NCBI RefSeq assembly: GCF_029952525.1
Contig: NZ_JASAOF010000004.1
Coordinates: 62,001 to 126,000, forward strand
Reading direction: 5' to 3'
Length of the DNA: 64,000 nt
From: Saccharopolyspora ipomoeae
GTDB lineage: Bacteria > Actinomycetota > Actinomycetes > Mycobacteriales > Pseudonocardiaceae
Part shown: piece after piece, positions 23,691 through 62,552 of the stretch
How the letters are laid out: every line of letters begins with the position of its first letter
Numbering within the stretch: position 1 is the stretch's first letter
Notes under the pieces: model-generated
Told to the model about the DNA's origin: nothing
What the model saw: the letters and a program-made list of their open reading frames with translations, nothing else
The model's database searches: none
Position numbers and translations under genes: made by a program

Positions 23691-23875
23691 CGTCAGGCAA
23701 CCGCCGCAGGCGGTTTCTCAGCACCCCACCTAGGCAACTGGCACCGCCGCGGGTTCTGAGCGGCTCTCTGGGGAGGACAGCCGACGTGTCGTGTATTGGC
23801 ACAAGCCTCGGATCCCGGAGCCAGAGAGCCGCTCAGGTTCCGCTTCTGGCACCGCCAAGCAACAAGATCACGGAG
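23691..23875. repeat. ~180-bp structured intergenic element, copy 1
   Basis: Begins CGTCAGGCAA and runs to ACCGCCAAGC. It holds a hairpin AACCGCC-GCA-GGCGGTT (23699-23715) and a long stem CTGAGCGGCTCTCTGG (23756-23771) with CCAGAGAGCCGCTCAG (23821-23836), 16 perfect pairs around a ~49-nt loop containing GGACAGCCGACGTGTCGTGT. The second copy is at 62374. The stem sequences differ between copies but stay paired. It lies between convergent genes. Confidence 0.88.
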
Positions 23876-23936
23876 TCGTGTCAGTAGACGAAAACCCGCA
23901 CGACCACACCGATGACGTCCAAAAACAGCCACAGAC

Positions 23937-26900
23937 CTAATGAAAATCCCGAGACTCCGAAGGCACCCGAATATCCAGTTTTTGGAGTCGATCGGCCCGC
24001 AGGTTCACCACCTCACCAGCCCGCTCAACAACCCCCCGAACCAACAGAGCAGCACTGGTACGTCCGACCTTCCGGTACCGAGCCCACAGCCCGGGCGAGC
24101 ACACGACGTTGACGGTCCCGGTCTCATCCTCGAGGTTGAGGAACGTGATCCCGCCAGCGGTGGCCGGCCGCTGCCGGTGAGTCACGGCCCCGCCCACCAG
24201 AACCCGGGTCCCGTGCTCCACTTCGGACAGACGAGAAGCGGGCAGCGCCCCGAGCTCGTCGAGGCGCGCCCGGACGAACTGCAGCGGGAAGCTGTCGGGT
24301 GAGACTCCGGTGGCCCACACGTCGGCGGCGGCCTTCTCGACGCCGTCCATCCCGGGCAGGGCAGGGGCGTCGGAGGAGACGGTGGTGCCGGGCAACCGGT
24401 CTGGTCGTTCGCGGGCGGCCGCGGCGGCGTTCCACAGCGCTTCGCGGCGGGTCAGGCCGAACCCGTCGAACGCGCCTCCGGTGGCCAGGGCTTCCATCTG
24501 GGGCGCGGTCAGGCGCACGCGCCGCGCCACGTCGGCCATGTCGGCAAAGGGCCCGTTCTCGGCGCGTTCGGCGACCAGCTCCTCGGCGAGGTCCTCGCCG
24601 AGCTTGCGCACCGCGGACAGACCGATGCGCACGGCTTGCCGTCCGGCGCTGGTGGTGTCGGGTTCCAGATCGGCGTGCACTCGGCTGGCGTTGATGTCGG
24701 GTCCGCGCACCACGACGCCGTGCCTGCGCGCGTCGGCGACCAGCGATTGCGGCGAGTAGAACCCCATCGGTTGGGCCTTGAGCAGCGCCGCGCAGAAGGC
24801 GGCCGGGTAGTAGCGCTTGAACCAGGCGCTGGCGAACACCAGCAGCGCGAAGCTCAGCGCGTGACTCTCGGGGAACCCGTAGTTGGCGAAGGCCAGCATC
24901 CGCTGGTAGATGTGCTCGGCCAGCTCTTCGCCGATGCCGTTGGCGGCCATGCCTTCGAAGAGCCTGTCGCGCAGGCGTTCCATGCGTTCGGCGGAGCGCT
25001 TTGCACCCATCGCCCGGCGGAGCTGGTCGGCCTCGGCCGGGCTGAATCCGGCGACGTCGACCGCCAGCTGCATCAGCTGCTCCTGGAACAGCGGGACGCC
25101 CAGCGTCTTGGCCAGCGCACCGGCCATCAGCGGATGTTCGTAGTCCCACTCCTCCTCGTCGTTGCGGCGGCGGATGTAGGGGTGCACCGATCCGCCCTGG
25201 ATGGGGCCGGGCCTGATCAGCGCGACCTCGACCACCAGGTCGTAGAACTCGCGGGGTTTGAGCCGGGGCAGCGTGGCCAGCTGCGCGCGGCTCTCCACCT
25301 GGAACACCCCGATGGCGTCGGCTCGGCGCAGCATCGCGTAGACCTCGGGATCGGACAGGTCCAGTTCGCCGAGGTCGACGTCGATGCCGTGGTGCTCGCG
25401 GGTCATGTCGATGGCGTGGTGCAGCGCCGAGAGCATGCCCAGGCCGAGCAGGTCGAACTTGACCAGGCCGACGGTGGCGCAGTCGTCCTTGTCCCACTGC
25501 AGCACCGTCCGGCCGGGCATCCGCGCCCATTCCACCGGGCACACCTCGCTGACCGGCTGGTGGCAGATCACCATGCCGCCGGAGTGGATCCCCAGGTGGC
25601 GCGGGAATCCCATCAGCTCGTCGGCGAGATCGCGCACCGCGCCGGGGATCTCGGAGTCCTCGGGCAGCGGTCCCCAGTGCTCGATCTCCTTGCTCCAGGC
25701 GTCCTGCTGGCCGGGCGAGTAGCCGAGCGCGCGGGCCACGTCGCGCACCGCGGACTTGGGGCGGTAGCCGATGACGTTGGCGACCTGGGCGGCGTGGGTG
25801 CGGCCGTACTTGGCGTAGACGTGCTGGATGACCTCCTCGCGGCGGCCGGATTCGATGTCGATGTCGATGTCCGGCGGCCCGTCCCGCTCGGGTGCGAGGA
25901 ACCGCTCGAACAGCAGCCGGTAGCGCACCGGGTCGGCGTTGGTGATGCGCAGCGCGAAGCACACGGCCGAGTTCGCCGCCGATCCCCTGCCCTGGCACAG
26001 GATGTCCTCGCGGCGGCAGAAGTCGATGATCTCGTGCACGACCAGGAAGTAGCCGGGGAACTCGAGCTCCTCGATGACGGCGAGCTCGTGCTCGATCTGC
26101 CGGTAGGCCTCCGGCGCGGCCTGCGGCGGCCCGTAGCGGTCGAGCGCGCCGAGGTAGACCAGTTCCCGCAGGTGGCTGGTCTCGGTGTGGCCGCGCGGCA
26201 CGTCGAACGGGGGCAGCTGGGGGGCGACCAGGCTCAGGTCGAACGCGCAGGACTTGCCGAGCTCGGCGGCCCGCTGCACCGCACCCGGGTAGCGGGCGAA
26301 GCGCTCGGTCATCTCGGCTCCGGAGCGCAGGTGGTTGCCGGCCCAGGCGGGCAGCCAGCCGTCCATGTCGTCCAGGCTGCGTCGCGCGCGGACGGCCGCG
26401 ACGACGCTCGCCAGCCGCGCCCGGTCCGGGCGCGCCAGGTGCGCGCCGGTGGTGGCCACCGTGGACAGCCCGGCCCGGTCGGCGAGCTCGGCTAGGGCGT
26501 CGTTGCGCACCGAGTCGGTGGGCAGGCCGTGGTCGGTGAGCTCGACGGTGACGTGCTCGCGACCGAAGAGCCCGACCAGCCGGTCGAGTTCGACCGCGGC
26601 GGCGTCCGTCCCGCCCGCGGCCAGGGCCGCCTGGACCGCGCCCTTGCGGCAGCCGGTGAGGACCTGCCAGTGCCCGGCCGCGTCGGCGGCCAGCTCCTCC
26701 AGCCGGTACTCCGGGCGTCCCTTCTCCTCTCCGCGCAGCTGCGCGGTGCTGATCGCCCGGCACAGGGAGGCGTAGCCGTCGAGGTCGCGGGCCAGCACCA
26801 GCAGGTGCCCGCCTTCGGGGTCGGGGACGCCGTTCTGCGACTGGGTGAGCCCCAGGCTCAGCTCGGCGCCGAACGCGGTGCGCACGTCGTGCTCCTTGGC

Positions 26901-27209
26901 GGCTTCGGCGAACCGCACGACGCCGTAGAGCCCGTCGTGGTCGGTGAGCGCGATGGCCTCCAGTCCGAGGTGCGCGGCCTCCTCGATCAGCTCCTCGGGG
27001 TGCGCGGCGCCGTCGAGGAAGCTGAAGTTGGAGTGCGCGTGCAGCTCGGCGTAGGGGACCTTCTCGCCCGGCGGCGACAGGCCGCGGCCTCGTCGTCGAT
27101 GTTCGGCGCGGGGGCGTGCCGCGGGACCCTCGTCGCGGCGCGGCGTCATCGTGCCGGAGAGGGCCTTCTCCAGCTCGGACCAGCTCTGGGGCGGGTTGAA
27201 CCAACTCAT
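23937..27209 (-). CDS. dnaE2: Error-prone DNA polymerase III alpha, DnaE2
   Basis: 1090-aa C-family polymerase of the ImuA'-ImuB-DnaE2 mutasome, which makes damage-induced mutations. N-terminal PHP domain (VPYAELHAHSNFSFLDG, about residue 47), polymerase palm with the PDIDIDIESGRR aspartates and QWDKDDC, then HhH and OB-fold. The short MSWFNPPQSWSELEKALSG N-terminus fits DnaE2, so ATG 27209 is chosen over frames reaching 27308. Two LexA boxes lie just upstream, one covering its ribosome site. Downstream of imuB with a 74-nt gap. Confidence 0.95.
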   Translation of the reverse strand: MSWFNPPQSWSELEKALSGTMTPRRDEGPAARPRAEHRRRGRGLSPPGEKVPYAELHAHSNFSFLDGAAHPEELIEEAAHLGLEAIALTDHDGLYGVVRFAEAAKEHDVRTAFGAELSLGLTQSQNGVPDPEGGHLLVLARDLDGYASLCRAISTAQLRGEEKGRPEYRLEELAADAAGHWQVLTGCRKGAVQAALAAGGTDAAAVELDRLVGLFGREHVTVELTDHGLPTDSVRNDALAELADRAGLSTVATTGAHLARPDRARLASVVAAVRARRSLDDMDGWLPAWAGNHLRSGAEMTERFARYPGAVQRAAELGKSCAFDLSLVAPQLPPFDVPRGHTETSHLRELVYLGALDRYGPPQAAPEAYRQIEHELAVIEELEFPGYFLVVHEIIDFCRREDILCQGRGSAANSAVCFALRITNADPVRYRLLFERFLAPERDGPPDIDIDIESGRREEVIQHVYAKYGRTHAAQVANVIGYRPKSAVRDVARALGYSPGQQDAWSKEIEHWGPLPEDSEIPGAVRDLADELMGFPRHLGIHSGGMVICHQPVSEVCPVEWARMPGRTVLQWDKDDCATVGLVKFDLLGLGMLSALHHAIDMTREHHGIDVDLGELDLSDPEVYAMLRRADAIGVFQVESRAQLATLPRLKPREFYDLVVEVALIRPGPIQGGSVHPYIRRRNDEEEWDYEHPLMAGALAKTLGVPLFQEQLMQLAVDVAGFSPAEADQLRRAMGAKRSAERMERLRDRLFEGMAANGIGEELAEHIYQRMLAFANYGFPESHALSFALLVFASAWFKRYYPAAFCAALLKAQPMGFYSPQSLVADARRHGVVVRGPDINASRVHADLEPDTTSAGRQAVRIGLSAVRKLGEDLAEELVAERAENGPFADMADVARRVRLTAPQMEALATGGAFDGFGLTRREALWNAAAAARERPDRLPGTTVSSDAPALPGMDGVEKAAADVWATGVSPDSFPLQFVRARLDELGALPASRLSEVEHGTRVLVGGAVTHRQRPATAGGITFLNLEDETGTVNVVCSPGLWARYRKVGRTSAALLVRGVVERAGEVVNLRADRLQKLDIRVPSESRDFH

Positions 27210-27216
27210 GGACCTA

Positions 27217-27232
27217 GTGAACTCCTGTTCGA
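27217..27232. promoter_or_regulatory. LexA (SOS) box, dnaE2-proximal
   Basis: GTGAACTCCTGTTCGA; on the minus strand TCGAAC-AGGA-GTTC, close to the mycobacterial consensus TCGAAC-N4-GTTCGA. It lies 8-23 nt before the dnaE2 ATG and contains the AGGAG ribosome site. Confidence 0.75.
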
Positions 27233-27264
27233 ACCGTGGCGCTACCAGCTGGGACGACATCCAC

Positions 27265-27280
27265 TCGAACGAGTGTTCCC
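27265..27280. promoter_or_regulatory. LexA (SOS) box, second site before dnaE2
   Basis: TCGAAC-GAGT-GTTCCC, 10 of 12 consensus positions, in the gap between imuB and dnaE2. Together with the site at 27217 it suggests dnaE2 has its own SOS promoter besides readthrough from imuB. Confidence 0.75.
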
Positions 27281-27283
27281 CTG

Positions 27284-28954
27284 CTACCGGTAGGTGCCCT
27301 GGACCCACCAGTCACCGCGCTCGTGCACCAGCAGCAGCGCGACCTCGTCCGCATCGCCGGACCCCGCATCGCCGGGCCCCGCCGGGGATTCCGGCGCGAG
27401 CACGACCTGGAGGCGGACCTGGGCCCGCGGCGGCACCTGCGATTCCGGCGCGGTCCGGCCGGACCCGGTGGCCAGCAGCTCGACCCACCAGCGCTCGGTC
27501 ACCGGCCACGGACCGGCCCAGCCGACCACGGCGCGGGACTTCCCGCCGGCCACCTCGACCCGGTCCGGAGCGGCGGACAGACCGGTCCGGTCGGTGATCC
27601 ACACCGGCTCGCCCGAGGCGTCGAGCACCCGCGCCGGCCACGGCTCGCCCGGCACCACCGTCGGCGACGGCGCCGGGATCCGGCCCGGCCACGGCGGTTC
27701 GGCGGGCAGCGTCGCGCGGCGCTCGTCGCCCCAGGGCACGAATCGCACCTGGTCACGAGGGTCCCTGCCGCCACCGAGCACGCCGGTCAGCACCGCTTCC
27801 GGGCCGAGCATGCCCTGCACTCGCGCGAAGGCCCGGCCCGCGCGGGCGGTGGCCTCGCCGGTCGCGGAGCTGAGCAGGTCGAGCTGCAGACCGCCCGCGC
27901 CCACGACCTCCTCGGGACTCAGGCTCAGCTCGCCGAGGCCCGCGGTGGGACGACCGGTGCGGCCGTTGAGCCAGCCGTCGAGCTGCCAGCGGACCCGGTC
28001 GGCGGTGGCGGCCGGGGTCAGCGGTTCCGCGCAGCGCCACGCCCGGTGCAGCTCCTCGCCGTTCTCGGTGCGCGCCGAGATGCCCAATCGGGTGCAGGCC
28101 AGGCCGAGATCGCCCAGCTTGGCGTGCAGGTCGTCGGCGAGCGCCTTGGCGACGAACGCCGCGCGGTCCACCCGGTCCACCGGCGGGTCGAGCTCCTCGG
28201 TGACGATCAGCTCGGGCGGTGGTCGACGCCGCTTGACCGGGCGCTCCTCCTGCCCTCCCGCCGACCGGTGGGCCAGCAGAGCGGCCTGCCCGAACCGGGT
28301 CGCCACGTCCGCCGGGCCCAGCGCGGCGAACTCGCCGAGGGTGCGAATCCCCAAGCGGCGCAGCAGGTCCACGAGCTCGGGCTGCTGCGCGACCTGCTTC
28401 GGGCCGAGCCGGTCGGCGAGCTGCTCGACCTCCTCGATCGGCAGCGGGGCGAGGAAGCCCCGGCTGCCACCGGGTTCGACGTGCCGGGCGTGCCGGGCGG
28501 CGAGGATCGCGGCGAACAGCCCGTCGGCGACGCCGATCCGGCACTCCACGCCGGTCTGCGCGTCGATGTGGTCGACGAGCTTCTCCGCGACGGCCTCCTC
28601 TCCGCCGAAGTAGCGCGCAGGCCCCCGGGCGGGCACGGCGACCAGGCCCGGGCGGACGACCTCGACCCCGGGCACGAGTTCCTCGACGGCGACCACGACG
28701 GGCTCGAAGAACCGCACGTCGCGCGCCGGATCGTGCTCGCACACGACGAGTTCCGGGCAGCGCCCCTGCGCCTCGCGGCGGCGCATCCCCCGGCGCACAC
28801 CGCCCTCGCGGGCGGTCGCCGAGCAGGCGACGACCCGGTTCGCGGCGAAAACCGCTGCGGGCACGAGAGGCGCGAGCTCGGCGGCGCGCGCGGCGGCCAC
28901 CACCGGCCAGTCCGGGCACCACACGACGATCCTGCGGGCCGGCACGTCGCTCAC
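27284..28954 (-). CDS. imuB: ImuB, Y-family-like mutasome adaptor
   Basis: 556-aa Y-family polymerase relative. The N-terminal palm starts IVVWCPDWPVVAAA, but the catalytic acidic residues of active Y-family enzymes are not evident, as expected for ImuB, which tethers DnaE2 to the beta clamp rather than synthesising DNA. The little-finger-like part and a long C-terminal extension (about 370-556) are present. The start overlaps the imuA' stop (ATGA). QLDLL near residue 370 is a plausible clamp-binding motif. Confidence 0.92.
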   Translation of the reverse strand: MSDVPARRIVVWCPDWPVVAAARAAELAPLVPAAVFAANRVVACSATAREGGVRRGMRRREAQGRCPELVVCEHDPARDVRFFEPVVVAVEELVPGVEVVRPGLVAVPARGPARYFGGEEAVAEKLVDHIDAQTGVECRIGVADGLFAAILAARHARHVEPGGSRGFLAPLPIEEVEQLADRLGPKQVAQQPELVDLLRRLGIRTLGEFAALGPADVATRFGQAALLAHRSAGGQEERPVKRRRPPPELIVTEELDPPVDRVDRAAFVAKALADDLHAKLGDLGLACTRLGISARTENGEELHRAWRCAEPLTPAATADRVRWQLDGWLNGRTGRPTAGLGELSLSPEEVVGAGGLQLDLLSSATGEATARAGRAFARVQGMLGPEAVLTGVLGGGRDPRDQVRFVPWGDERRATLPAEPPWPGRIPAPSPTVVPGEPWPARVLDASGEPVWITDRTGLSAAPDRVEVAGGKSRAVVGWAGPWPVTERWWVELLATGSGRTAPESQVPPRAQVRLQVVLAPESPAGPGDAGSGDADEVALLLVHERGDWWVQGTYR

Positions 28955-29730
28955 CCCGCCACCGCGCGCAGGTGAGCCCGAGCGGCCGGGCGTTCTCCGG
29001 CAGCCGCGACGTCGGAAACGGTTGCAACGGCGGCGGTTTCGACAGCCGAGGTTTCGACAAGGGAGCTTTCGACAGGGGCGATCGCACCGTCGCGGGAGGG
29101 GAGCAGCACTCGGCAGGAACGCGGGCGCGACGCCGCGCCACGCCCTTCGGCGTGCACCGCGATCTCACGTTCGCGCAGGTGACCGTGGCCGTGCCCGAGT
29201 CCGCGCCAGCGGGCCCCGGAACAGCGCAGCTGCACCTCCGCGCCCGGCCAGCGCCCGAAGGGCAGCAGCACCGAACCGCGGTGGCGCGCTCGCGCGGAGA
29301 GCCTGCGGGCATCGGCGTCGAGCACCCACCCGGTCCCGCCGACCACGACCAGGTCGACGCCGTCGAGCAGCGCCGCGATCACGCCCGCCGGATCGGATCC
29401 CGGCTGCGGCACGACCGCCAGCCGCTCCAGCGACACCCCCGCCTCGGCGGCGGCGACCAGGTTGATGCCGGGCAGGCCCACCACGGTCGCCCAGGAACCG
29501 TTCGCCGTGGCCTCCGCCAGCAGCGCGAACAGCAGTGACACCGATCCGTGCACCGCCACCGTGCTGCCGCGGCGCAAACCTGGCCACGGCAGCACGGCGG
29601 CGAGTTCCGCCCGCGTCGGCAGCACCCGGCCCGCACCCGGGACACCGCCCGCCTCGACGCGCGGCACACCCACGGACACCCCGTCAGCCGTGGGCGCGCT
29701 CAGCGGCGTCGAAGACACCATCGCGGACAT
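28951..29730 (-). CDS. imuA: ImuA', RecA-like mutasome accessory protein
   Basis: 259-aa RecA-fold protein of the actinobacterial ImuA' type (Rv3395c family), required with ImuB and DnaE2 for damage-induced mutagenesis. It has AVLPWPGLRRGSTVAVHGS at the nucleotide-site position but no canonical GKT Walker A lysine. ATG 29730 is 5 nt after GGGGAGGG; the upstream GTG at 29745 is less likely. First gene of imuA'-imuB-dnaE2; two LexA boxes lie about 170 and 230 bp upstream. Confidence 0.9.
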   Translation of the reverse strand: MSAMVSSTPLSAPTADGVSVGVPRVEAGGVPGAGRVLPTRAELAAVLPWPGLRRGSTVAVHGSVSLLFALLAEATANGSWATVVGLPGINLVAAAEAGVSLERLAVVPQPGSDPAGVIAALLDGVDLVVVGGTGWVLDADARRLSARARHRGSVLLPFGRWPGAEVQLRCSGARWRGLGHGHGHLREREIAVHAEGRGAASRPRSCRVLLPSRDGAIAPVESSLVETSAVETAAVATVSDVAAAGERPAARAHLRAVAG

Positions 29731-29901
29731 CGCCGCCCTCCCCACATACGTGACCGCGGTGGGTGCCCGACCCCGGCGCGGGCACCCACGAACACAGCCG
29801 CTGCGGGGAAGGCAGCGGTGGAGTCAGCGCTGCGCCTGCACCCGGACCACAGCGCCGAACCCCATCGGAGCGGCCGACCCCGACACCGGCCGTCCCCAAT
29901 C

Positions 29902-29917
29902 TCGAACTTTCGTTCGA
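29902..29917. promoter_or_regulatory. LexA (SOS) box, perfect
   Basis: TCGAAC-TTTC-GTTCGA, an exact match to the mycobacterial/actinobacterial LexA consensus, upstream of imuA'. Confidence 0.92.
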
Positions 29918-29961
29918 ACAAGTCCAGTTAACCCTGCTCGGAGAGCCAAGTCAAGGACCAA

Positions 29962-29977
29962 GGGAACATTCGTTCGA
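29962..29977. promoter_or_regulatory. LexA (SOS) box, second site upstream of imuA'
   Basis: GGGAAC-ATTC-GTTCGA, centred exactly 60 bp from the perfect box. The 29731-30046 intergenic stretch holds these two sites, a small GAGTGCG/CGCACTC hairpin (30013-30029) and nothing else recognisable. Confidence 0.82.
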
Positions 29978-30046
29978 AAGAGTGATCCGGGGCTCTGCTC
30001 CCGCCCTCCCACGAGTGCGTTTCGCACTCCGCCCGCCCCAGAGCGC

Positions 30047-30085
30047 AAAAGAACGAGCCCCGAGGCCGAGGGCCTCGGGGCTCGT
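30047..30085 (-). terminator. purH terminator
   Basis: Perfect 15-bp stem ACGAGCCCCGAGGCC/GGCCTCGGGGCTCGT with a 3-nt loop, followed on the minus strand by TCTTTT. Confidence 0.9.
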
Positions 30086-30100
30086 CGTGGATGAGCGTCG

Positions 30101-31666
30101 TCAGTGGGCGAAGTGGCGGGTGCCCGTGAGGTAGACCGGGACTCCGGCCGCCTCCGCCGCCGCGATGACCTCGCCGTCGCGGACCGAACCGCCCGGCTGG
30201 ACGACGGCGCGGACACCGGCGTCGAGCAGGACCTGCAGGCCGTCCGGGAACGGGAAGAACGCGTCCGAGGCCGCGACCGAGCCCTTGGCGCGGTCACCCG
30301 CGCGGGCGACCGCCAGGCGGGCCGAGTCGACCCGGTTCACCTGGCCCATGCCCACGCCGACCGTCGCGCCCGCGTCGGCCAGCAGGATCGCGTTCGACTT
30401 CACCGCGCGGCAGGCGCGCCAGGCGAACTTCAGGTCCGCCAGCGTCGCCGCGTCCACCGGGGAACCGGTCGCCAGCGTCCAGTTCGCCGGGTCGTCGCCG
30501 TCGGCGTCGATGGCGTCCGAGCCCTGCACCAGCATGCCGCCGGAGATCGCGCGCATCTCGACCCGGCCGCTCTGCGGCGGCTGGGCGGTCAGGATGCGGA
30601 TGTTCTTCTTCTTGTTCAGCACGTCCACCGCGCCCTCGGCGTAGCCGGGGGCCACCACGACCTCGGTGAAGATCTCCGCGACCTGCTCGGCCATCGCCAC
30701 CGTCACCTCGCGGTTGGTGGCGATCACGCCGCCGAACGCGCTCACCGGGTCGCACTCGTGCGCCTTGCGGTGCGCGGCGGCGATGTCGTCGGCGACCGCG
30801 ATGCCGCACGGGTTGGCGTGCTTGATGATCGCCACGCACGGCTCGTCGTGGTCGTGCGCGGAACGCCACGCGGCGTCGGCGTCGACGTAGTTGTTGTAGG
30901 ACATCTCCTTGCCGTGCAGCTGCGCGGCCGCGGCCAGGCCGGTGGCCTCCCCGCCCGAGACGTACAGCGCGGCCGGCTGGTGCGGGTTCTCCCCGTAGCG
31001 CAGCGCGGAGCGGCGCTGCCAGGTCTCGCCGATCCAGCCCGGGAACGCGGCGTCGTCACCGGTCGGGACCTTGCTCATCCAGGACGCCACGGCCACGTCG
31101 TAGGACGCGGTGTGCCGGAACGCCTCGGCCGCCAGCTCGGTCCGGTCGGCCATCGAGAAACCGCCCGCGCGAACCTCCTCGAGAACCCACTCGTAGCGGC
31201 TCGGGTCGACCACGACGGCCACGTTGGCGTGGTTCTTCGCCGACGCGCGCACCATCGCCGGACCGCCGATGTCGATCTGCTCGATCACCTCGTCCTGCGC
31301 GGCGCCCGAGGCCACCGTCCGCACGAACGGGTACAGGTTGACCACCAGCAGGTCGAACGGAGCGATCTCCAGCTCCTCCAGCTGCCGGGCGTGGGTGTCG
31401 CGACGCAGGTCGGCGAGCAGGCCCGCGTGCACCCGCGGGTGCAGCGTCTTGACCCGGCCGTCCAGCGCCTCCGGGAAGCCGGTGAGCTCCTCGACGGGCG
31501 TGACCGGCACGCCGGCGTCGGCGATCGCGCGCGCCGTGCCGCCGGTGGAGACGATCTCCACCCCGGCCGCGTGCAGCCCGGTGGCCAGCTCCAGCAGGCC
31601 CGACTTGTCCGACACGCCGATCAGCGCGCGGCGAACCGGGCGCCGCTCCTGGGAGTTCGCGGTCAC
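30101..31666 (-). CDS. purH: PurH, AICAR transformylase/IMP cyclohydrolase
   Basis: 521-aa bifunctional enzyme for the last two steps of IMP synthesis. N-terminal IMP cyclohydrolase ([27 protein letters not shown]) and C-terminal transformylase ([31 protein letters not shown]). GTG 31666 overlaps the purN stop (GTGA), so the two purine genes are coupled. FolD at 16 kb supplies the 10-formyl-THF both need. Confidence 0.97.
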
Positions 31667-33822: not shown

Positions 33823-33906
33823 GCGACCGAATGTCGCACCACCGCTGCTCCGAACGGCCTCGAACACGCCAGCGCATCCGCCCATCGGGGGATGTGGGCT
33901 GGGAGC

Positions 33907-36052: not shown

Positions 36053-36059
36053 GATCGCC

Positions 36060-53310: not shown

Positions 53311-53334
53311 GGTAGTCGGCGATCGTCTCGACGC

Positions 53335-55117: not shown

Positions 55118-55201
55118 CCACCCGAGGAGGGGCTCCTCCGAACCCCCGGGGAAGCCCCTCCTCGCTGCGGTGGTCCAGCGCGGTGTCGACGATGGTGGGC
55201 A

Positions 55202-55274
55202 GGGGACAGTTTTAATTAAAACCGTCCATGATCGATGTCCGTTATGCCCGGACAGTTCTCACTAAAACTGCCCC
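55202..55274. repeat. ~70-bp palindromic element, copy C (inverted)
   Basis: Same element as copies A and B but in opposite orientation: the complement carries CAGTTTTAGTGAGAAC, the GGACATCGATCATGG core and TTTTAATTAAAACTGTCC. Arms are less perfect but most changes keep pairing, several as G-T. Lies between convergent kinase 2 and the LysR gene. Confidence 0.85.
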
Positions 55275-55297
55275 ACTCCAGAGCACGACAACCCCAC

Positions 55298-55396
55298 CTT
55301 CGCGTCAGCCCACTTCCGCGCCAGCCCGCTTCCGCTTCAGCCCACTTCCACGGCGGGGCGCTTCTACAGCGGGGCGCTTCTGCGTCAGGTCACTTC
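55298..55396. repeat. 16-bp tandem array at LysR gene 3' end
   Basis: CTTC units start at 55298, 55313, 55329, 55345, 55361, 55377 and 55393, mostly 16 bp apart. The last is the final Lys codon region of the LysR gene (stop at 55390-55392). On the gene strand the units read GCGGAAGTGGGCTGAC with drift. Begins 24 bp from palindromic element C. Confidence 0.9.
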
Positions 55397-56286
55397 TGGG
55401 CCACTTCGTGGAGGCAGTGCTGGAGGGAGCGGGCGGCGGGGAGGTCGGCGACGGCTTCGCGGACGGCGAGGTGGAGGTGGCGGGTCGGCTCCGGGTTGGT
55501 GACCGCGCGGACCTCCACGCCCGGGTGCACGACGTCGAGCCCGAGCCGCGGCACCAATGCGATCCCCATCCCCGCGGCGACGAAGCTCTGCGCGGAGTAG
55601 GTGCTGTCGGTCTCGACCACGACGCGCGGCGTGAAACCGGCGCTGGCATAGGCGTCTTCGAGCAGCCGGGAGCAGATCCCGCCGTCGGTGACCGAGCTGT
55701 TGATCCACGAGTCGTGGGCCAGCTTGGCCATGTCGACGCTCCCCTGGTCGACCTGCGGGTGCGAGCCGGGCAGCACCACCCGGTACGGGTCGTCGGCCAG
55801 GTGCACCAGCCGCACCCCGCGCCGCTCCGGCACCGACTCGCCGAGCACGATGACCGCCAGGTCCGCCTCCCCGGCCTCGACGTCGTCGAGCAGCCCCGCC
55901 TCCTGCAGCTGCAGGTCCAGCTGCACCTCCGGGTGCTCGGCGCGGAACTTGGCCACGGCCTGCGGGATCAGGCCGACGGCGGCGGTGGTGAAGAACCGCA
56001 GCCGCAGCAGGCCGGTGCGACCGGCCCGGATGTCGGCGAGCTCGGCCTCGGTCTCGCCCAGCAGCTCGGCGATCCGCCCGGCGCGCTCGGCCAGCAGCGT
56101 GCCCGCCGGGGTCGGGCGCAGCCCGCGCCCGACCTTCTCCAGCAGCGGCGTCCCGGCCTCCTTCTCCAGCGTGGAGAGCTGCTGGCTGATGGCCGAGGGG
56201 GTGAAGCCGAGGTTGGACGCGGCAGCGCTCACCGAACCGCTGGTGACCACCGCGCGCAGGACCTGCATCCGCCTGACGTCGAGCAC
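55390..56286 (-). CDS. LysR family regulator
   Basis: 298-aa regulator: N-terminal winged HTH (VVTSGSVSAAASNLGFTPSAISQQLSTLE pattern, residues 12-45) and a type 2 periplasmic-binding-like effector domain (about 90-290). Divergent from the DMT exporter gene; the AT-rich 125-bp spacer (TTGAGATTAATTCGC near 56314) is the probable operator. Likely controls that exporter. Confidence 0.92.
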   Translation of the reverse strand: MLDVRRMQVLRAVVTSGSVSAAASNLGFTPSAISQQLSTLEKEAGTPLLEKVGRGLRPTPAGTLLAERAGRIAELLGETEAELADIRAGRTGLLRLRFFTTAAVGLIPQAVAKFRAEHPEVQLDLQLQEAGLLDDVEAGEADLAVIVLGESVPERRGVRLVHLADDPYRVVLPGSHPQVDQGSVDMAKLAHDSWINSSVTDGGICSRLLEDAYASAGFTPRVVVETDSTYSAQSFVAAGMGIALVPRLGLDVVHPGVEVRAVTNPEPTRHLHLAVREAVADLPAARSLQHCLHEVAQK

Positions 56287-56411
56287 GCCACCAACGATAC
56301 AGGATTGCTTACACGTTCGTTGAGATTAATTCGCTTTTCCTTACACCTCGGGTTCCGCAAGCTGGTCGTACCACTTCGGTGAACCGGCTTCGACGACTCT
56401 GGGGAGTGATC

Positions 56412-57371
56412 ATGAACAACCCGACCAGCTACCTGCGGCTGGGCGCGCTCGCGCTGTTCTGGGGAGCGAGCTTCCTGCTGATCAAGCTCGGTCTGGAAGC
56501 CCTGTCACCGACGCAGATCGCGCTGGCCCGCATCGTGCTGGGCGCGCTCACGCTGCTGGCGATCTGCGCGGTGCGCGGCCTGCGCATCCCCGGCGACCGC
56601 GTCCTGTGGCGGCACGTCGCCGTCGCCGCGGTGTTCGCCAACGCCCTGCCGTGGGTGCTGCTGGCCGTCGGCGAGCAGACCGTCGAGTCCGGGCTGGCCG
56701 GAGTGCTCAACGCGACGACACCGCTGTGGACGGTGCTGTTCGGCCTGCTCGCCGGCCGGGAGGCGCTGCCACCGCGCCGCGCCGCGGGCCTGCTGCTCGG
56801 ATTCCTCGGCGTGCTGGTCATCTTCGCGCCGTGGCAGGGCGGCGGGATGCTGGGCTGGGGCGTGCTCGCGTGCGTCGCGGCGTCCGCCAGCTACGGCATC
56901 GGATTCGTCTACACAGGACGGTTCATCACCGGGCGCGGCACACCGCCGCTGGCGCTGGCGAGCATGCAGCTCACCGCCGCGATCGGGTTCTCCGTGCTCG
57001 CGCTGCCCCTCGACGGGCTGCGGATGGTGCACTGGGAGCCGGTGGCGCTGCTGGCCGTCCTCACCCTGGGCGTGGTCGGCACCGGCATCGGTTTCGCCCT
57101 GAACTACCGGCTCATCGGCGACGAAGGCGCCACCACGGCCTCCACGGTCACCTACGTGATGCCCATCTTCTCGGTCCTGCTCGGCTGGCTCCTGCTGGGC
57201 GAGCAGCTCCCGCTCCGAGTCATCCTCGGCATGGTCGTGGTGCTGCTCGGCGTCGCCCTCACGCACCGCAAGACCCCGGGCGCGCCGGCGCTGCTCACCC
57301 GCGCGGGCCGCAGCTTCGCGCGAGCGTCGGAGCTCTACGCCGACCTCGCCCGGAACCACCCGATGAAGTGA
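56412..57371 (+). CDS. EamA/DMT family transporter
   Basis: 319-aa drug/metabolite transporter with ten helices in two EamA repeats (LALFWGASFLLIKLGLEAL; ASASYGIGFVYTGRF...). Usually amino-acid or metabolite export. ATG 56412 has GGGGAG 7 nt upstream. Divergent from LysR. Confidence 0.9.
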   Translation: MNNPTSYLRLGALALFWGASFLLIKLGLEALSPTQIALARIVLGALTLLAICAVRGLRIPGDRVLWRHVAVAAVFANALPWVLLAVGEQTVESGLAGVLNATTPLWTVLFGLLAGREALPPRRAAGLLLGFLGVLVIFAPWQGGGMLGWGVLACVAASASYGIGFVYTGRFITGRGTPPLALASMQLTAAIGFSVLALPLDGLRMVHWEPVALLAVLTLGVVGTGIGFALNYRLIGDEGATTASTVTYVMPIFSVLLGWLLLGEQLPLRVILGMVVVLLGVALTHRKTPGAPALLTRAGRSFARASELYADLARNHPMK

Positions 57372-57385
57372 CGCGCCCCCGACCG

Positions 57386-58072
57386 TCACACCAGGCGGCG
57401 GTCGGAGGCCCAGCGGGAGAGCTCGTAGCGGTTGGAGAGCTGCGTCTTGCGCAGGACGCTGGAGACGTGGGTCTCCACGGTCTTGACCGAGATGAACAGC
57501 TCGGAGGCGATCTCCTTGTAGGCGTAGCCCCGGGCGAGCAGGCGCAGCACCTCGCGCTCGCGGCGGGTGAGCAGGTCCAGCTCGGGATCGCCGACCGGCG
57601 CGGCGTTGGGCCCCTCGGAGAAGGCGTCGAGGACGAATCCCGCCAGCCGGGGCGAGAACACGGCGTCGCCGGCCTTGACCCGGGTGATGGCGTCGACCAG
57701 CTCGCGCCCGGAGATCGTCTTGGTGACGTAGCCGCGGGCGCCGCCGCGGATCACCGCTATCACGTCCTCGGCCGCGTCGGAGACCGACAGGGCCAGGAAC
57801 ACGATCTCGCCCTTGTCGTCGCCGGAGCGGGCGCGGACCTGCCGCAGCACCTCGGCGCCGCCGCCGTCGGGCATGTGGACGTCGAGCAGCACCACCTCGG
57901 GCCGGTAGTGGCCGATGCCGGCCACCGCCTCGGCGACCGAGCCCGCCTCACCCACGATCTCGACGCCGTCGGCGGCGGCGAGCTCGGCGCGGACACCGGC
58001 GCGGAACAGCGCGTGGTCGTCGACGAGGAACACCCGGACCGAGCCCGGATCCTCGGTGGCTTCACCGGTCAC
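57386..58072 (-). CDS. NarL/LuxR-type response regulator
   Basis: 228-aa regulator: receiver domain (VFLVDDHALFRAGVRAEL; phospho-acceptor Asp in LLDVHMPDGGG near 66; KTI Lys near 116) and LuxR-type HTH (LTRREREVLRLLARGYAYKEIASELFISVKTVETHVSSVLRK pattern, about 165-210). GTG 58072 has GGAGGA 5 nt upstream. Follows its histidine kinase by 41 nt. Confidence 0.95.
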   Translation of the reverse strand: MTGEATEDPGSVRVFLVDDHALFRAGVRAELAAADGVEIVGEAGSVAEAVAGIGHYRPEVVLLDVHMPDGGGAEVLRQVRARSGDDKGEIVFLALSVSDAAEDVIAVIRGGARGYVTKTISGRELVDAITRVKAGDAVFSPRLAGFVLDAFSEGPNAAPVGDPELDLLTRREREVLRLLARGYAYKEIASELFISVKTVETHVSSVLRKTQLSNRYELSRWASDRRLV

Positions 58073-58113
58073 AACATCCTCCGAAAACGTCGTTTCCCCA
58101 GGCAGGCTACGCC

Positions 58114-59475
58114 TCACGCCGCCGACCTGGGCATTTCCATCGCGACCTCGGTGCCCTGACCGGGCGAGGTGCGCACCTTGACCTTGCCGCCGTGCCGCTG
58201 CACGCGGCCGCGCACGGAGTCGGCGAGCCCGTGCCGGTCCTCGGGGACCTGGTCCGGGTCGAACCCGGCGCCCCGGTCGCGCACGAACACCGACACCAGC
58301 TCGGGTTCGACCTCCGCGTAGACGCTGACCTCGCGGACCCCGGCGTGCTTGGCCGCGTTGACCAGCGCCTCGCGGGCCGCGTTGAGCTGCGCGGTGAGCC
58401 GGTCGTCGACCTCGCAGTCGCCGACGACGACCTGCTGCACGGTGATCGCGAAGTGGTCCTCCACCTCGCCGCAGATGCGGGCCACCTCGGCGGCGAAGGT
58501 CGCCTTCTCCGCCTCCTCGGATGTTCCCGCGCTGTCCCCGGCCGCGCCGTAGCCGTCGGGGCCGTAGAGCCAACCGCGCAGCTCGCGCTCCTGACCCCGG
58601 GCGAGCCTGCGGACCTCGCGCTCGGAACCGGCCTGCTTCTGGATCAGGGCCAGCGTCTGCAGCACCGAGTCGTGCAGGTGCGCGGCGATCTCGGCGCGCT
58701 CCTGGGACCGGATTCGGCTGGAGCGCTCGACGTTGAGGTCGCGCATCATCCGCACCCACCAGGGCACGGTGAGCACGGCGACGCCGACGAGCGTGGCGCC
58801 GGAGGCCAGCAGCCCGGTCGGCAGCGCGTCCAGCGAGGTGGTGCTGCCGACGAGCAGCGCCATGCCGACGACCACCAGCGCGGCACCGGACATCACCCGG
58901 ATCCAGGCGCTGCGCGCGCCCGAGCCGAGCAGGGCGCCCGCGACCCCGGAGCGGGCGCCCTGCCGCCAGCGGCGGCGCTGTGAGTCGTCGGCCTCCCGCC
59001 ACACCACCGCCGCCCCCACCAGGGCCACCACCAGCGGGACCGTCAGCCACGTCGGCATCGACAGCACGGCGCCGAAGGCGGCCAGCGCGCCGACGCCGAG
59101 CAGCACGATCCCGAAGCCCTGCTGCCACTCCCGTTTCGTCGCCGGGCGCGATCCGCCGCCCTGCGGCACGAACGCCCACAGCAGCGCGTACCCGAGGATC
59201 CCTGCGCCACCGAGAGCCGACAGCACCGCGAAGGTCATCCGCACCCACAGCACCCGGACGCCCAGGTGCTCGGCCACGCCCGCGCACACCCCGGCCAGCA
59301 ACCGCCCGTCGCGGGTCCGGTGCAGCTGCGGGAGCACGGGCAGCATCCGCTCGGTGGGCTCACCGCCTCGGCGCATCCGCGGGTCGGTCCGCATCGGATT
59401 CACCTTGCGCGGCGCGTGCTGCGGGGGCTGCGAGGGGTTCTGGTCGTCGGGGGCCGTCACGTTTTCGATGGTCAC
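58114..59475 (-). CDS. PspC-domain sensor histidine kinase
   Basis: 453-aa kinase. Residues about 45-110 are a PspC domain (LHRTRDGRLLAGVCAGVAEHLGV), followed by several membrane helices, a HisKA_3 dimerisation motif with phospho-His268 (AEIAAHLHDSVLQTLALIQ) and a HATPase domain (EALVNAAKHAG, DRGAGFDPDQV). It probably senses envelope stress, as LiaS/PspC-type systems do. Divergent from a second PspC gene. GTG start. Confidence 0.93.
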   Translation of the reverse strand: MTIENVTAPDDQNPSQPPQHAPRKVNPMRTDPRMRRGGEPTERMLPVLPQLHRTRDGRLLAGVCAGVAEHLGVRVLWVRMTFAVLSALGGAGILGYALLWAFVPQGGGSRPATKREWQQGFGIVLLGVGALAAFGAVLSMPTWLTVPLVVALVGAAVVWREADDSQRRRWRQGARSGVAGALLGSGARSAWIRVMSGAALVVVGMALLVGSTTSLDALPTGLLASGATLVGVAVLTVPWWVRMMRDLNVERSSRIRSQERAEIAAHLHDSVLQTLALIQKQAGSEREVRRLARGQERELRGWLYGPDGYGAAGDSAGTSEEAEKATFAAEVARICGEVEDHFAITVQQVVVGDCEVDDRLTAQLNAAREALVNAAKHAGVREVSVYAEVEPELVSVFVRDRGAGFDPDQVPEDRHGLADSVRGRVQRHGGKVKVRTSPGQGTEVAMEMPRSAA

Positions 59476-59616
59476 ACGGTCGAGACCCCCGGGGCATCAG
59501 GGACGTCCCCTGACCTACCCGGGGGTGGGATCGTCTTCCTGACGAGCTCCCCACCGAGCTCCCGGACGACGATCGACTTGGTGGCCTCTCGACGCCCGTT
59601 CCGGTCGACGTGGGGT

Positions 59617-59642
59617 GGGGAAGTTTTCATGAGAACTTCCCC
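59617..59642. repeat. Palindromic repeat, copy 2
   Basis: GAAGTTTTCATGAGAACTTC (59620-59639), extended by GGG/CCC to 26 bp with one G-T position; followed by GTCCCCGAAC, as after copy 1. Confidence 0.87.
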
Positions 59643-59719
59643 GTCCCCGAACGGACCACCACCCGGTTGACCTGTTCGAAGAACTCTCGGAGGGCCGTTC
59701 CCGACGTGCGGTGGGAGAT

Positions 59720-59739
59720 CGAAGTTTTCATGAAAACTT
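59720..59739. repeat. Palindromic repeat, copy 3
   Basis: Perfect palindrome GAAGTTTTCATGAAAACTTC, flanked by GGTGGGAGATC and CCCACC. Centre exactly 100 bp from copy 2. Confidence 0.9.
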
Positions 59740-59834
59740 CCCACCCCCCGGGAGGCGGCGGAGCCCGGGACCGGGGGTGGTCTCAGGGGACTCCCGGATT
59801 CCCGGGAGGTGCGCCGGGTCGGATAGTGGTCGGC

Positions 59835-61025
59835 ATGAACAGCACGCAGCAATCCGGTGGCGTCGACGCCACCCTGCGCGACTTCTGGGCCACCCGCCCG
59901 GTCCGGCCGCGCAGCGGGTCGAAGGCGGCGGGTGTGTCGGCGGCGATCGCGCGCCGCTACGGCGTCGACCCGATCCTCGTGCGGGTCGCCTTCGTGGTGC
60001 TCGCCTGCTACGGCGGAGCCGGGATCGTCCTCTACATGCTGGGCTGGCTGCTGTTCCCGAAGGAGGCGCCACCGCTGCCCGGCCAGACGACGCCGAGCCG
60101 CGAACCCACCGCGACGTGGATCGTGGTGGTGCTGGTGCTCCTGCTGTTCCCGAGCCTGATGTGGATGATCAGCTCGATGGCGGTGCTGGGGCTGGCGGCC
60201 GGTCCGGTCGCGCTGTACCTCCTGCACCGCAACCAGGGCGACCGCCAGGTGACCGGGACGTCGAACCCGCCGCCGCAAGCGACTCCGACCGGCGAGAACA
60301 CCTGGGTCTACCCCGGTGCCGCGGCGGAGCCGCAGACCCCGCCCGCGTGGGACCCGCTTGGCGCGGCACCGTTCGCGTGGGACCTGCCGGAGCCCTCCGA
60401 GCCCGAACCGCCGGAGCCGAGGTCGCGGCGGTACCGGTGGTTCAACCCGGTCGCGCTGCTCGCGGCGTTCCTGGCCGCGGTCGTGGTCGCGGGCTCGGGC
60501 GCCGGGGGCGCTCCGGCGGCGGCCGCGGGCCTGGGCGTGCTCGGCGCGGCGATGGTGATCGGCGCGTTCCTGCACGTGGGGCGCTGGCCGATCCTGTTCG
60601 CGGTGCCGCTGGCGATGTTCGCCCTGATCGCCTCGTTCGCCGACGAGTACCGGTTCAACGGCGATCTGAGCGTGGGCGACCTGCGGGTCGCGCCGATCGA
60701 GACCACCGACGTGCTGTCGAGCTACGACCGCACCGCCGGGACCGTCGAGCTGGACCTGTCGGATCTGCGGATCAGCACCGGCCAGGTCGTGGAGACCACC
60801 GCGAACGTCGGCGCGGGCAAGGTCCTGATCCGCGTTCCCTCCACTGTGGACGTGACGGCGCACTGCGACGCCGAGGTCGGCGAACTCACCTGCCTGGGCC
60901 GGCACGCCAACGGCCAGGACCTGCAGCGGTCCGTCACCGACGAGGGCCCGGACGGGCTCGGTGGCGGCAAACTCGTGCTCAACGCAGCGGTGGGCACCGG
61001 AAACGTGGAGGTCGTCCGTGACTGA
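59835..61025 (+). CDS. PspC-domain membrane protein
   Basis: 396-aa protein: PspC domain (about 15-75: VSAAIARRYGVDPILVRVAFVVLACYGGAGIVLYMLGWLLF pattern), more helices, an acidic/Pro linker (about 145-200), three helices (about 210-265) and a C-terminal extracytoplasmic beta-rich adhesin-like domain (TAGTVELDLSDLRI ... LNAAVGTGNVEVVRD) recalling LiaF/DUF2154. Likely partner of the divergent PspC kinase system in envelope-stress sensing. Confidence 0.87.
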   Translation: MNSTQQSGGVDATLRDFWATRPVRPRSGSKAAGVSAAIARRYGVDPILVRVAFVVLACYGGAGIVLYMLGWLLFPKEAPPLPGQTTPSREPTATWIVVVLVLLLFPSLMWMISSMAVLGLAAGPVALYLLHRNQGDRQVTGTSNPPPQATPTGENTWVYPGAAAEPQTPPAWDPLGAAPFAWDLPEPSEPEPPEPRSRRYRWFNPVALLAAFLAAVVVAGSGAGGAPAAAAGLGVLGAAMVIGAFLHVGRWPILFAVPLAMFALIASFADEYRFNGDLSVGDLRVAPIETTDVLSSYDRTAGTVELDLSDLRISTGQVVETTANVGAGKVLIRVPSTVDVTAHCDAEVGELTCLGRHANGQDLQRSVTDEGPDGLGGGKLVLNAAVGTGNVEVVRD

Positions 61026-61206
61026 CGAGACCACGCCCTACGAGGGCCCCGACCCGATCCTGCTTGTCGCAGGCGCCATCGCGCTGATCATCACGGCCAC
61101 CGTCGCGCTCGACCTGTCGAGCTTCCTGCAGTGGATCCTCGCCGGGGTCGCGGTGATCGTCGGCGTCGTGCTGCTGGTGGCGTCGCTGCGTCGTCGAGCG
61201 GAGTGA
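61018..61206 (+). CDS. Small two-helix membrane protein
   Basis: 62-aa protein with two transmembrane helices (about 14-32 and 36-55) and a basic end. GTG 61018 overlaps the PspC stop by 8 nt, so it is coupled to it. Not recognised beyond this; such small proteins commonly follow pspC in this order. Confidence 0.7.
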   Translation: MTDETTPYEGPDPILLVAGAIALIITATVALDLSSFLQWILAGVAVIVGVVLLVASLRRRAE

Positions 61207-61401
61207 ATTTGCCAGTTCCACCAGCACTTTCGCGATCGCGTTGAGGATTTCCGGGAATTTTTCCCGTTCCTCACCGATCGCATCTCCTGCACCCTTTCCA
61301 AAACACGACAACCTCCACCGAGCGCGGCTCCGGTCTGCTGATACTGCGGTCTTGATCGATCCGAACAGCGTTGCTCCCAACATCCCCGCAAGGAGCTGGC
61401 C

Positions 61402-62322
61402 ATGACCAGGAACCGCTTGCTCGCAGGCGGCGCCGTGCTCGCCCTGTTCGTCTCGCTGCCGTCCGCGGCGGCGGGCGCGAACCCGGCTGAGGCGCCGAAG
61501 GACGCGAAGCCGCGCGCGGAGGTCTTCTTCGACGACTTCTCCGGCAGCGAGCTCGACCGCTCGAAGTGGCAGGTCGAGGTGACCGGTGAGAACTTCGGGA
61601 CCGTCAACAACGAGCAGCAGGCCTACGTCGACTCGCCCGAGACGATCTACATCGACCACGACGACAGCGGCACCGGCGCCCAGAACGGCGCGCTCGCGCT
61701 GCACCCGCGCTACCAGCAGGGCTTCCAGGCGCCCGACGGCGGCACCTACGACTTCGTGTCCGGGCGGGTGAAGACCGAGGACAAGTTCGAGTTCACCTAC
61801 GGCAGCTACTCGGCTCGCATCAAGCTGCCGGAGAACGCCACCGGCTCGGGCCTGTGGCCGGCGTGGTGGTCGCTGGGCACCAGCATCAACGAGGGCAAGC
61901 CGTGGCCGGAGTGCGGCGAGGTCGACGTGATGGAGCACGTCGGCGAGCCGTGGACCAGCTCGGCGATGCACGGCCCCGAGTACAACGGCGACACCCCGAT
62001 CACCCACCAGCAGAACTTCGAGGGCAAGGACCCGGCCGACTGGCACACCTACCGGGTGGACTGGACGCCGGAGGGCTTCACCTTCTTCGTCGACGACACC
62101 CAGACCTACCAGGTGACCAAGGCCGAGTTCGACGCCAACGGCTGGACCTGGGTCTTCGACGACCCGCAGTACATGATCCTGAACTTCGCCACCGGCGGTC
62201 AGTACCCGCAGAACGTCAACGGCGTCACGGAGCCCTACCCGGGCCTGCCGCAGGAGAGCGTCGACAAGATCAAGGCCGGAACGGCCCGCTACCTGATCGA
62301 CTGGGTCAAGGTCGAGCAGTGA
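61402..62322 (+). CDS. Secreted GH16 beta-glucanase
   Basis: 306-aa glycoside hydrolase family 16 protein with a signal peptide (residues 1-25, cut near AAAGA). Catalytic motif E-x-D-x-x-E is GEVDVMEHVG with Glu173 (nucleophile), Asp175 and Glu178 (acid/base). Probably an endo-1,3- or 1,3(4)-beta-glucanase acting on fungal or plant glucans. Good AAGGAG site. Standalone with its own terminator. Confidence 0.92.
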   Translation: MTRNRLLAGGAVLALFVSLPSAAAGANPAEAPKDAKPRAEVFFDDFSGSELDRSKWQVEVTGENFGTVNNEQQAYVDSPETIYIDHDDSGTGAQNGALALHPRYQQGFQAPDGGTYDFVSGRVKTEDKFEFTYGSYSARIKLPENATGSGLWPAWWSLGTSINEGKPWPECGEVDVMEHVGEPWTSSAMHGPEYNGDTPITHQQNFEGKDPADWHTYRVDWTPEGFTFFVDDTQTYQVTKAEFDANGWTWVFDDPQYMILNFATGGQYPQNVNGVTEPYPGLPQESVDKIKAGTARYLIDWVKVEQ

Positions 62323-62334
62323 GCCGAACCTGAA

Positions 62335-62367
62335 AAGGGCCCCTCTGACCAGGTCAGAGGGGCCCTT
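62335..62367 (+). terminator. GH16 gene terminator
   Basis: AAGGGCCCCTCTGA pairs with TCAGAGGGGCCCTT (14 bp, 5-nt loop CCAGG), then CTTC. Confidence 0.85.
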
Positions 62368-62373
62368 CTTCAC

Positions 62374-62552
62374 GTCAGGCAAGCGGCGAAGCGGCTTTCT
62401 CAGCACCCCACCTAAGACGCTTGCACCGCCGCGGGTTCTCAGACGTCTTCCGGGGAGGACAGCCGACGTGTCGTGTATTGGCATACACAAGCCTCGGATC
62501 CCGGAGCCAGAAGGCGTCTGAGGTTCCGCTACCCGCACCGCCAAGCAGAACG
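62374..62552. repeat. ~180-bp structured intergenic element, copy 2
   Basis: Same order of parts as the copy at 23691: CGTCAGGCAA, hairpin AAGCGGC/GCGGCTT, CTCAGCACCCCACC, GCACCGCCGCGGGTTCT, stem CTCAGACGTCTTCCGG (62439-62454) with CCAGAAGGCGTCTGAG (62507-62522), and ACCGCCAAGC. The loop carries a 4-nt insertion (TACA) relative to copy 1. Between convergent GH16 and guaA genes. Confidence 0.88.

What the first reader, a model, noticed from the sequence alone, without database searches (positions are those of the whole stretch)
23691..62552. Repeated ~180-bp intergenic element with compensatory stem changes
Copies at 23691-23875 and 62374-62552 share loop and flanks almost exactly, but the 16-bp stem differs at 7 positions per arm. 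Five of those are full compensatory pair swaps, one becomes a G-U pair and one a mismatch. A second hairpin at the 5' end also covaries (AACCGCC/GGCGGTT against AAGCGGC/GCGGCTT). A 4-nt loop indel argues against protein coding. Both copies lie between convergent genes. This is the pattern of a conserved structured RNA or a hairpin-dependent DNA element, not of neutral repeats.
Basis: seen in the sequence. Interest (0 to 1): 0.75.

Follow-up and report, generated by a model that had tools for sequence, protein, structure and literature searches.

The report
Multicopy structured RNA element of actinomycetes
The two repeats belong to a large family of about 180-base elements at gene ends in Saccharopolyspora and related soil bacteria, and their folded RNA shape is kept by matching changes on both sides of the stems, so the shape, and not only the sequence, is being preserved.

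Summary
Both copies belong to one family: a covariance model finds 139 matches in the own Saccharopolyspora genome and hits in 79 of 297 sampled Pseudonocardiaceae genomes, 15 of 46 genera. No Rfam family matches. The long stem covaries: over 96 distinct arm haplotypes 89% of cells are Watson-Crick against 64% with arms shuffled, and G-T outnumbers A-C 108 to 18, pointing to + strand RNA. In another genus an orthologous copy beside gatB, in genomes with one to four copies, varies at 8 stem columns, all with both-sided changes. Orthologous copies in two Saccharopolyspora species differ by whole-helix swaps; no mixed arm types were seen. Copies sit at gene ends, none between divergent genes among 67 own copies, sense strand mostly opposing replication. 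In S. rosea the family is a MITE: inverted repeats almost those of an IS5-family element, TNA duplications in 17 of 23 units. That was not found for the window's copies. Function is inferred: my guess is a sense-strand RNA barrier against antisense, head-on transcription entering convergent gene ends.

The parts
23691..23875 (+). copy 1 of the element
23699..23715 (+). copy 1, 5' hairpin with GNA-type triloop (AACCGCC-GCA-GGCGGTT)
   Evidence: helix 2
23741..23757 (+). copy 1, nearly invariant box GCACCGCCGCGGGTTCT
   Evidence: 6 changes in 425 cells over 25 orthologue pairs
23757..23771 (+). copy 1, 5' arm of long stem (type A)
23821..23835 (+). copy 1, 3' arm of long stem (type A)
23849..23856 (+). 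copy 1, second GCACCGCC box
62373..62552 (+). copy 2 of the element
62381..62397 (+). copy 2, 5' hairpin (one G-G mismatch)
62439..62453 (+). copy 2, 5' arm of long stem (type C)
62507..62521 (+). copy 2, 3' arm of long stem (type C)

Best explanation
SHOWN: the repeats are two of more than 100 copies of a Pseudonocardiaceae family of ~180-bp interspersed elements whose + strand specifies a conserved RNA fold (5' triloop hairpin; long stem next to nearly invariant unpaired boxes; internal loop; apical hairpin). Pairing is maintained by both-sided changes, also between orthologous copies at one locus. In S. rosea the element moves as DNA, as an IS5-family-type MITE with TNA target duplications; because TGA fits TNA, insertion at a stop codon keeps the stop. 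In the window's lineage many copies are old, shared between species, and differ between species by exchange of whole helices. INFERRED: the sense RNA works in cis, on the nascent transcript, as a barrier (C-rich unpaired leader plus strong hairpin, possibly Rho-dependent termination or RNA processing) that stops antisense transcription, which would run head-on to replication, just before it enters the 3' end of the convergent, mostly leading-strand gene. IS-borne spread plus recombination between copies distributes and homogenises it; selection on the transcript keeps the stems paired.
For: Family size and spread. Covariation 97.2% of cells paired vs 84.3% shuffled, score 0.339 vs 0.123, 0.029-0.064 when slid; arm haplotypes 0.890 Watson-Crick vs 0.645 permuted; G-T 108 vs A-C 18, 26 vs 4 in 25 well-paired copies of other genera (27 parsed, 28 tried). 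gatB locus in 5 of 7 genomes of genus g49: 8 of 8 variable stem columns have both-sided changes; a dioxygenase-like locus in 3 of 7: 6 of 7; element far better conserved than the spacer upstream. Both arms of the same type in 112 of 112 copies whose arms fall in types A-D, while arm type is near-random against the right half of the inner loop. 25 of 41 fetched S. flava copies share a site with one of 70 fetched own copies. TIR/TSD in S. rosea. Of 144 distinct placed copies 114 face a convergent gene at their 3' end, 58 of these at 9-20 nt from its stop and 74 at 30 nt or less; in 15 low-copy loci of other genera, 14 do and 12 within 20 nt. No divergent site among 67 own copies; 20 of 21 convergent sites follow the contig's majority orientation. 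Sense strand points to the origin in 112 of 149 (G013) and 81 of 116 (S. rosea).
Against: No transcript was examined. No conserved promoter and no U-run common to all subfamilies was seen. Folding copy 2 alone is unremarkable on + (z -1.83) and better on - (z -3.52). Individual copies decay: at the site of copy 1 one relative has a damaged stem, one a truncated element, and two show no recognisable element. One of five gatB copies (G180) has three unpaired columns, and a third g49 locus shows two variable columns with no compensation. Inverted repeats and target duplications were shown only in S. rosea. (+,+) copies do not follow the orientation rule (2 major, 3 minor); 6 of 144 distinct copies lie between divergent genes. 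Arm type is linked to the 12-nt box (0 of 500 shuffles) and weakly to the 5' hairpin (P 0.034) and the left loop (P 0.01), so shuffling is incomplete. Orientation could come from the insertion mechanism rather than from function.
Confidence: 0.5

Rival explanations
1. Selfish MITE with no RNA function: paired arms are kept by DNA processes, namely template switching within the hairpin during replication and gene conversion between the many copies.
For: Mobile MITE in S. rosea; block exchange between orthologues; template switching is proposed to create and maintain RNA hairpins (PMC8794818; title and start of abstract in a search listing only).
Against: Arm correction predicts no strand bias, but G-T outnumbers A-C 108:18 and a T-G pair persists in the commonest type B and C haplotypes. 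Both-sided changes at the gatB locus, where three of five genomes hold one copy at 1e-5. The 17-nt box changes at 6 of 425 cells in 25 orthologue pairs while the neighbouring 13-nt box changes at 116 of 325.
Confidence: 0.2
2. Hairpin-dependent DNA element: the + strand folds as single-stranded DNA at the replication fork and is bound by a protein or an HUH-type transposase, as REP elements are.
For: Replication-oriented copies; GNA-type triloops, which I recall as very stable in DNA.
Against: By my reading of the polarity the sense strand lies mostly on the leading-strand template, not the exposed lagging template; wobble pairs are common in three helices; S. rosea copies have DDE-type ends and TNA duplications. 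No HUH transposase was searched for.
Confidence: 0.15
3. Trans-acting small RNA family: copies are genes of one protein-bound regulatory RNA, amplified by transposition.
For: Nearly invariant unpaired boxes; maintenance at one locus across species.
Against: Position next to a convergent stop codon recurs across genera, which suggests a local role; no conserved upstream promoter in four gatB-side copies.
Confidence: 0.25

Closest known systems
Pneumococcal BOX, RUP and SPRITE repeats (PMC3049150, passages seen)
   Same: Small interspersed repeats, many copies, predicted RNA stem-loops, over-represented between convergent genes; nested insertions (PMC10969869, passage)
   Different: Different host; no sequence comparison was made. 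The main text has 0 matches for 'covar' and 0 for 'compensatory'; here structure is kept through both-sided changes across genera, with replication polarity and helix-wise exchange between orthologous copies
IS5-family-associated MITEs
   Same: S. rosea copies: 16-bp TIR differing at 1 base from a resident 962-bp IS5-family element, TNA duplications
   Different: The interior specifies a conserved RNA fold that is also found where no such TIR was seen
Stem-loop sequence families in bacterial genomes (PMC2267715, listing only)
   Different: Multi-helix architecture with conserved unpaired boxes and covariation; whether that survey covers this family was not checked

Membership tests
MITE (IS5-family type) | terminal inverted repeats matching a resident IS | tested here: met
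   S. rosea only: GTGCCTGTCTTTGAAC vs IS GTGCCTGTCTTTGATC; not seen for the window's own subfamily, whose ends differ
MITE (IS5-family type) | target-site duplication | tested here: met
   S. rosea: identical TNA in 17 of 23 distinct TIR-TIR units; not shown in the window's lineage
MITE (IS5-family type) | current mobility in the window's lineage | tested here: inconclusive
   25 of 41 S. flava copies share a site with the 70 fetched own copies; the other 16 could match own copies that were not fetched
Rfam RNA families | match to a curated covariance model | tested here: not met
   whole window at gathering threshold: only a tRNA; copy 1 region at E<=5: three matches far below their gathering scores, two miRNA families and one lncRNA
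Intrinsic terminator | GC hairpin followed by a U-run, on every copy | tested here: inconclusive
   by eye some subfamilies have TTTCTC after the 5' hairpin or GTTTT on the minus strand, others do not; no terminator scan was run
REP/RAYT | linked HUH transposase and ssDNA mobility | not tested
   no search for that transposase was made
BOX elements | sequence homology to boxA/B/C modules | not tested
   no BOX sequence was compared

The most novel reading that the evidence does not exclude
A new class of mobile but host-maintained RNA element: a replication-oriented, multicopy RNA barrier that guards the 3' ends of leading-strand genes from head-on antisense transcription, spread by borrowed transposon ends and updated in place by exchange of whole RNA helices between copies, a mode that a helix-aware (hairpin-guided or RNA-templated) conversion process would explain.
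Probability: 0.25. Interest if true: 0.88.

Novelty: new variant of a known kind. Interest (0 to 1): 0.72.

Why it matters
Interspersed repeats in bacteria are often treated as parasitic debris. Here more than 100 copies per genome keep an RNA fold through compensatory changes, including between orthologous copies at one locus, so the family offers a countable natural experiment: which base pairs matter, whether selection or DNA repair keeps hairpins paired, and whether bacteria use structured elements to control antisense transcription at gene ends. It is also a candidate for an RNA family database, since Rfam 15 has no match.

Tried and rejected
A partner gene was looked for beside low-copy copies of other genera by all-against-all comparison: matches only between orthologous loci and between general enzyme families; the open reading frames beside the Amycolatopsis and Actinopolyspora copies were only read by eye, and no mobile gene was recognised. 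Element against plasmid and phage records: no match. A genus-only distribution, suggested by 0 of 19 genomes outside the genus, was rejected when 58 of the 79 matching genomes of the wider draw lay outside it. Intrinsic terminator as the general function was set aside for want of a U-run common to the subfamilies (by eye). Gene orientation alone as the cause of element orientation was set aside because 20 of 21 convergent sites follow the contig's majority orientation. Papers: PMC4008361, PMC3827479, PMC3049150, PMC10969869, PMC3610266 and PMC5371812 were seen as search passages only; all others in listings. No description of this family was recognised in the listings; most subscription papers and preprints are not held.

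The draft's 61 of 90 for S. rosea used 90 of the 116 rows, picked by hand; with all rows it is 81 of 116.
Full report
1. Observation. The two stretches are present at the given coordinates and share almost all of their sequence outside the stem. The 5' arm of the long stem differs at 7 of 15 positions and the 3' arm at 5; five of the changes are full pair swaps, one gives U-G and one a C-A mismatch. The small 5' hairpin of copy 2 carries a G-G mismatch. Both lie between convergent genes.

2. A large family. BLAST of copy 1 against the own genome (6.63 Mb, 47 contigs) scored 40 of 147 candidates and lists 48 matches: 40 long ones, copy 1 included, and 8 short ones that are self-pairing arms or a piece. 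A covariance model built from 28 copies gives 139 matches at E<=1, the weakest of them short or partial; 150 of 7204 first-look candidates were scored, so this may be a lower bound. S. rosea gives 116 matches at E<=0.001 and an unnamed 8.3-Mb relative 150 of 150 scored. Among 22 genomes of the genus, own included, 21 match at E<=0.01; one has none, three have 3 to 6, one 33, the others 65 or 66 where 66 were scored. In a wider draw 79 of 297 genomes of the family match at 1e-5, 15 of 46 genera, 58 of the 79 outside this genus. No Rfam family matches.

3. Structure. RNAalifold on the + strand of 28 copies gives a 5' hairpin with a GNA-type triloop, a long stem, an internal loop and an apical hairpin; G-U cells are 127 and A-C cells 10. 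On a 63-row alignment 97.2% of cells pair against 84.3% in shuffles; 30 of 48 pairs change on both sides (18.9 in shuffles); the covariation score is 0.339 against 0.123, and 0.029-0.064 when partners are slid. That alignment was fitted to the model, which favours it, and includes a few weak rows, one of them a match on the wrong strand of a copy. A count that only uses two sequence anchors found 96 distinct arm haplotypes in 211 of 245 distinct copies: Watson-Crick 1282 cells, G-T 108, A-C 18, other 32; Watson-Crick fraction 0.890, permuted mean 0.645, maximum of 1000 permutations 0.685. Leaving out the column with a widespread T-G, G-T is 57 and A-C 18. These cells are not independent events. 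In 25 well-paired copies of other genera (27 parsed of 28 tried) G-T is 26 and A-C 4. The bias means that the + strand, read as RNA, is the constrained one. Against this, the minimum-energy fold of copy 2 alone is not unusual on + (z -1.83) and is better on - (z -3.52).

4. Selection at single loci. In another genus (g49, 7 genomes, 1 to 4 copies each at 1e-5) the element abuts a gene that I read as gatB in 5 of 7 genomes. In four of these, aligned, the spacer upstream is hardly alignable while the element is well conserved. Eight of 15 stem columns vary over the five copies and all eight show both-sided changes; one copy (G180) has three unpaired columns. At a second locus, beside a dioxygenase-like gene in 3 genomes, six of seven variable columns do; at a third, in 2 genomes, none of two. 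Three of the gatB genomes (G102, G129, G149) hold only that one copy at 1e-5; G102 and G129 have one further match at 2e-5 and 5e-4. Conversion from sister copies is therefore an unlikely cause there, though replacement by transfer was not excluded.

5. Exchange between copies. Flanks show that 25 of 41 S. flava copies are at the same sites as one of 70 fetched own-genome copies, and 9 of 21 S. dendranthemae copies likewise (species names from contig lengths). In the pairs that the cut output shows, flanks are often near-identical but the elements differ by blocks: the 5' hairpin, a 3-nt box, a 12-nt box, both arms of the long stem together, the inner helix, a 6-nt box. Over the 25 S. flava pairs the box GCACCGCCGCGGGTTCT changes at 6 of 425 cells, GAGGACAGCC at 3 of 238, GGATCCCGGAG at 4 of 272, GGTTCCGC at 2 of 195, the second GCACCGCC at 9 of 200 (6 of them in its last base), and a 13-nt stretch of the variable box at 116 of 325; the most variable column changes in 72%. 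Flanks, 300 bp each side and largely coding, differ at 7.7%. Among 123 of 132 copies with both anchors, the two arms agree in 112 of 112 copies whose arms fall in types A-D; the other 11 carry other types or single changes. Arm type is near-random against the right half of the inner loop (P 0.35), weakly linked to its left half (P 0.01) and to the 5' hairpin (P 0.034), and linked to the 12-nt box (0 of 500 shuffles); the two loop halves, which pair, are linked. So helices have been reshuffled, incompletely, without leaving mismatched arm types. Selection after ordinary conversion, or a hairpin-guided process, could both do this.

6. Position and polarity. Relative to the element, neighbours are (-,-) 62, (+,-) 52, (+,+) 24, (-,+) 6 in 144 distinct placed copies (147 of 156 rows were placed). 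Spacers of 200 bp or more in the 8-kb loci, element-bearing ones included, are 56, 32, 53, 42 (genes by a home-made caller). In the own genome: 29, 28, 10, 0 of 67 placed of 70. Of 114 copies facing a convergent gene at the 3' end, 58 end 9-20 nt and 74 at most 30 nt from its stop. In the own genome 29 of 57 do so at 9-19 nt, and 24 of 38 have their 5' end 4-17 nt after the stop of a + gene; some others begin just after a terminator-like hairpin. Taking dnaA as the origin and the far side as the terminus, the sense strand points towards the origin in 112 of 149 copies of the G013 chromosome and 81 of 116 of S. rosea. Convergent sites, where gene direction gives no preference, follow the contig's majority orientation in 20 of 21 cases; (-,-) sites in 14 of 16, (+,+) in 2 of 5; this test used 42 of 67 copies.

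7. How it moves. In S. rosea the element is bounded by GTGCCTGTCTTTGAAC and its complement (162 occurrences of the pattern with at most one mismatch, 0 of the reversed control). Of 23 distinct units with both ends, 17 have an identical 3-bp duplication, all TNA. A 962-963-bp insertion sequence coding for an IS5-family transposase (NF033580; Pfam DUF4096 and DDE_Tnp_1) has the same end but for one base, and the four copies fetched all sit at the same TGA in the 3' arm of the stem of an element (the list was capped, so there may be more). TNA includes TGA, so insertion at a stop codon restores the stop. Replication-linked orientation of insertion sequences is known (PMC5371812, passages). No such ends were seen for the window's own subfamily. 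At the site of copy 1 the element is present in S. flava and S. dendranthemae, damaged in one relative, truncated in S. endophytica, and not recognisable by eye in two: single copies seem dispensable.

8. Function. Not shown. The recurrent adjacency to a convergent stop codon, the sense-strand constraint, the rarity in divergent spacers and the head-on polarity fit a barrier acting on antisense transcripts before they enter a gene. A study of S. erythraea reports antisense transcription enriched at gene 3' ends (PMC3610266, passage); whether that species carries the element was not tested. A trans-acting RNA, a DNA hairpin and a functionless MITE kept paired by DNA repair remain open.

9. Novelty. 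Structured interspersed repeats are a known kind (BOX, RUP, SPRITE). This family differs in strong covariation across genera, replication polarity and helix-wise exchange, hence new variant of a known kind.

Noticed in passing
window 62336-62369: Strong hairpin with T-rich tail after the glycoside-hydrolase-like gene; copy 2 begins directly behind it, as some other own-genome copies begin behind terminator-like hairpins.
   Followed up: partly
L236, L237, L238, L247 (S. rosea): IS5-family element, four copies fetched, each nested at the same TGA in the stem of a repeat copy; some repeats are also nested in one another.
   Followed up: yes
L212, L214, L245 (S. rosea): A longer subfamily (279-284 bp between inverted-repeat ends) with an extra ~50-bp piece.
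   Followed up: no
L103, L111, L124, L134, L163 and others: A subfamily with a shared stretch upstream of the 5' hairpin (CCGCAGCCGCGAC-like), possibly a further helix or a promoter.
   Followed up: no
L130 5' flank (S. oryzae): A long AT-rich palindrome next to a repeat copy.
   Followed up: no
window 8082-8153, minus: A tRNA gene, the only Rfam match of the window.
   Followed up: no
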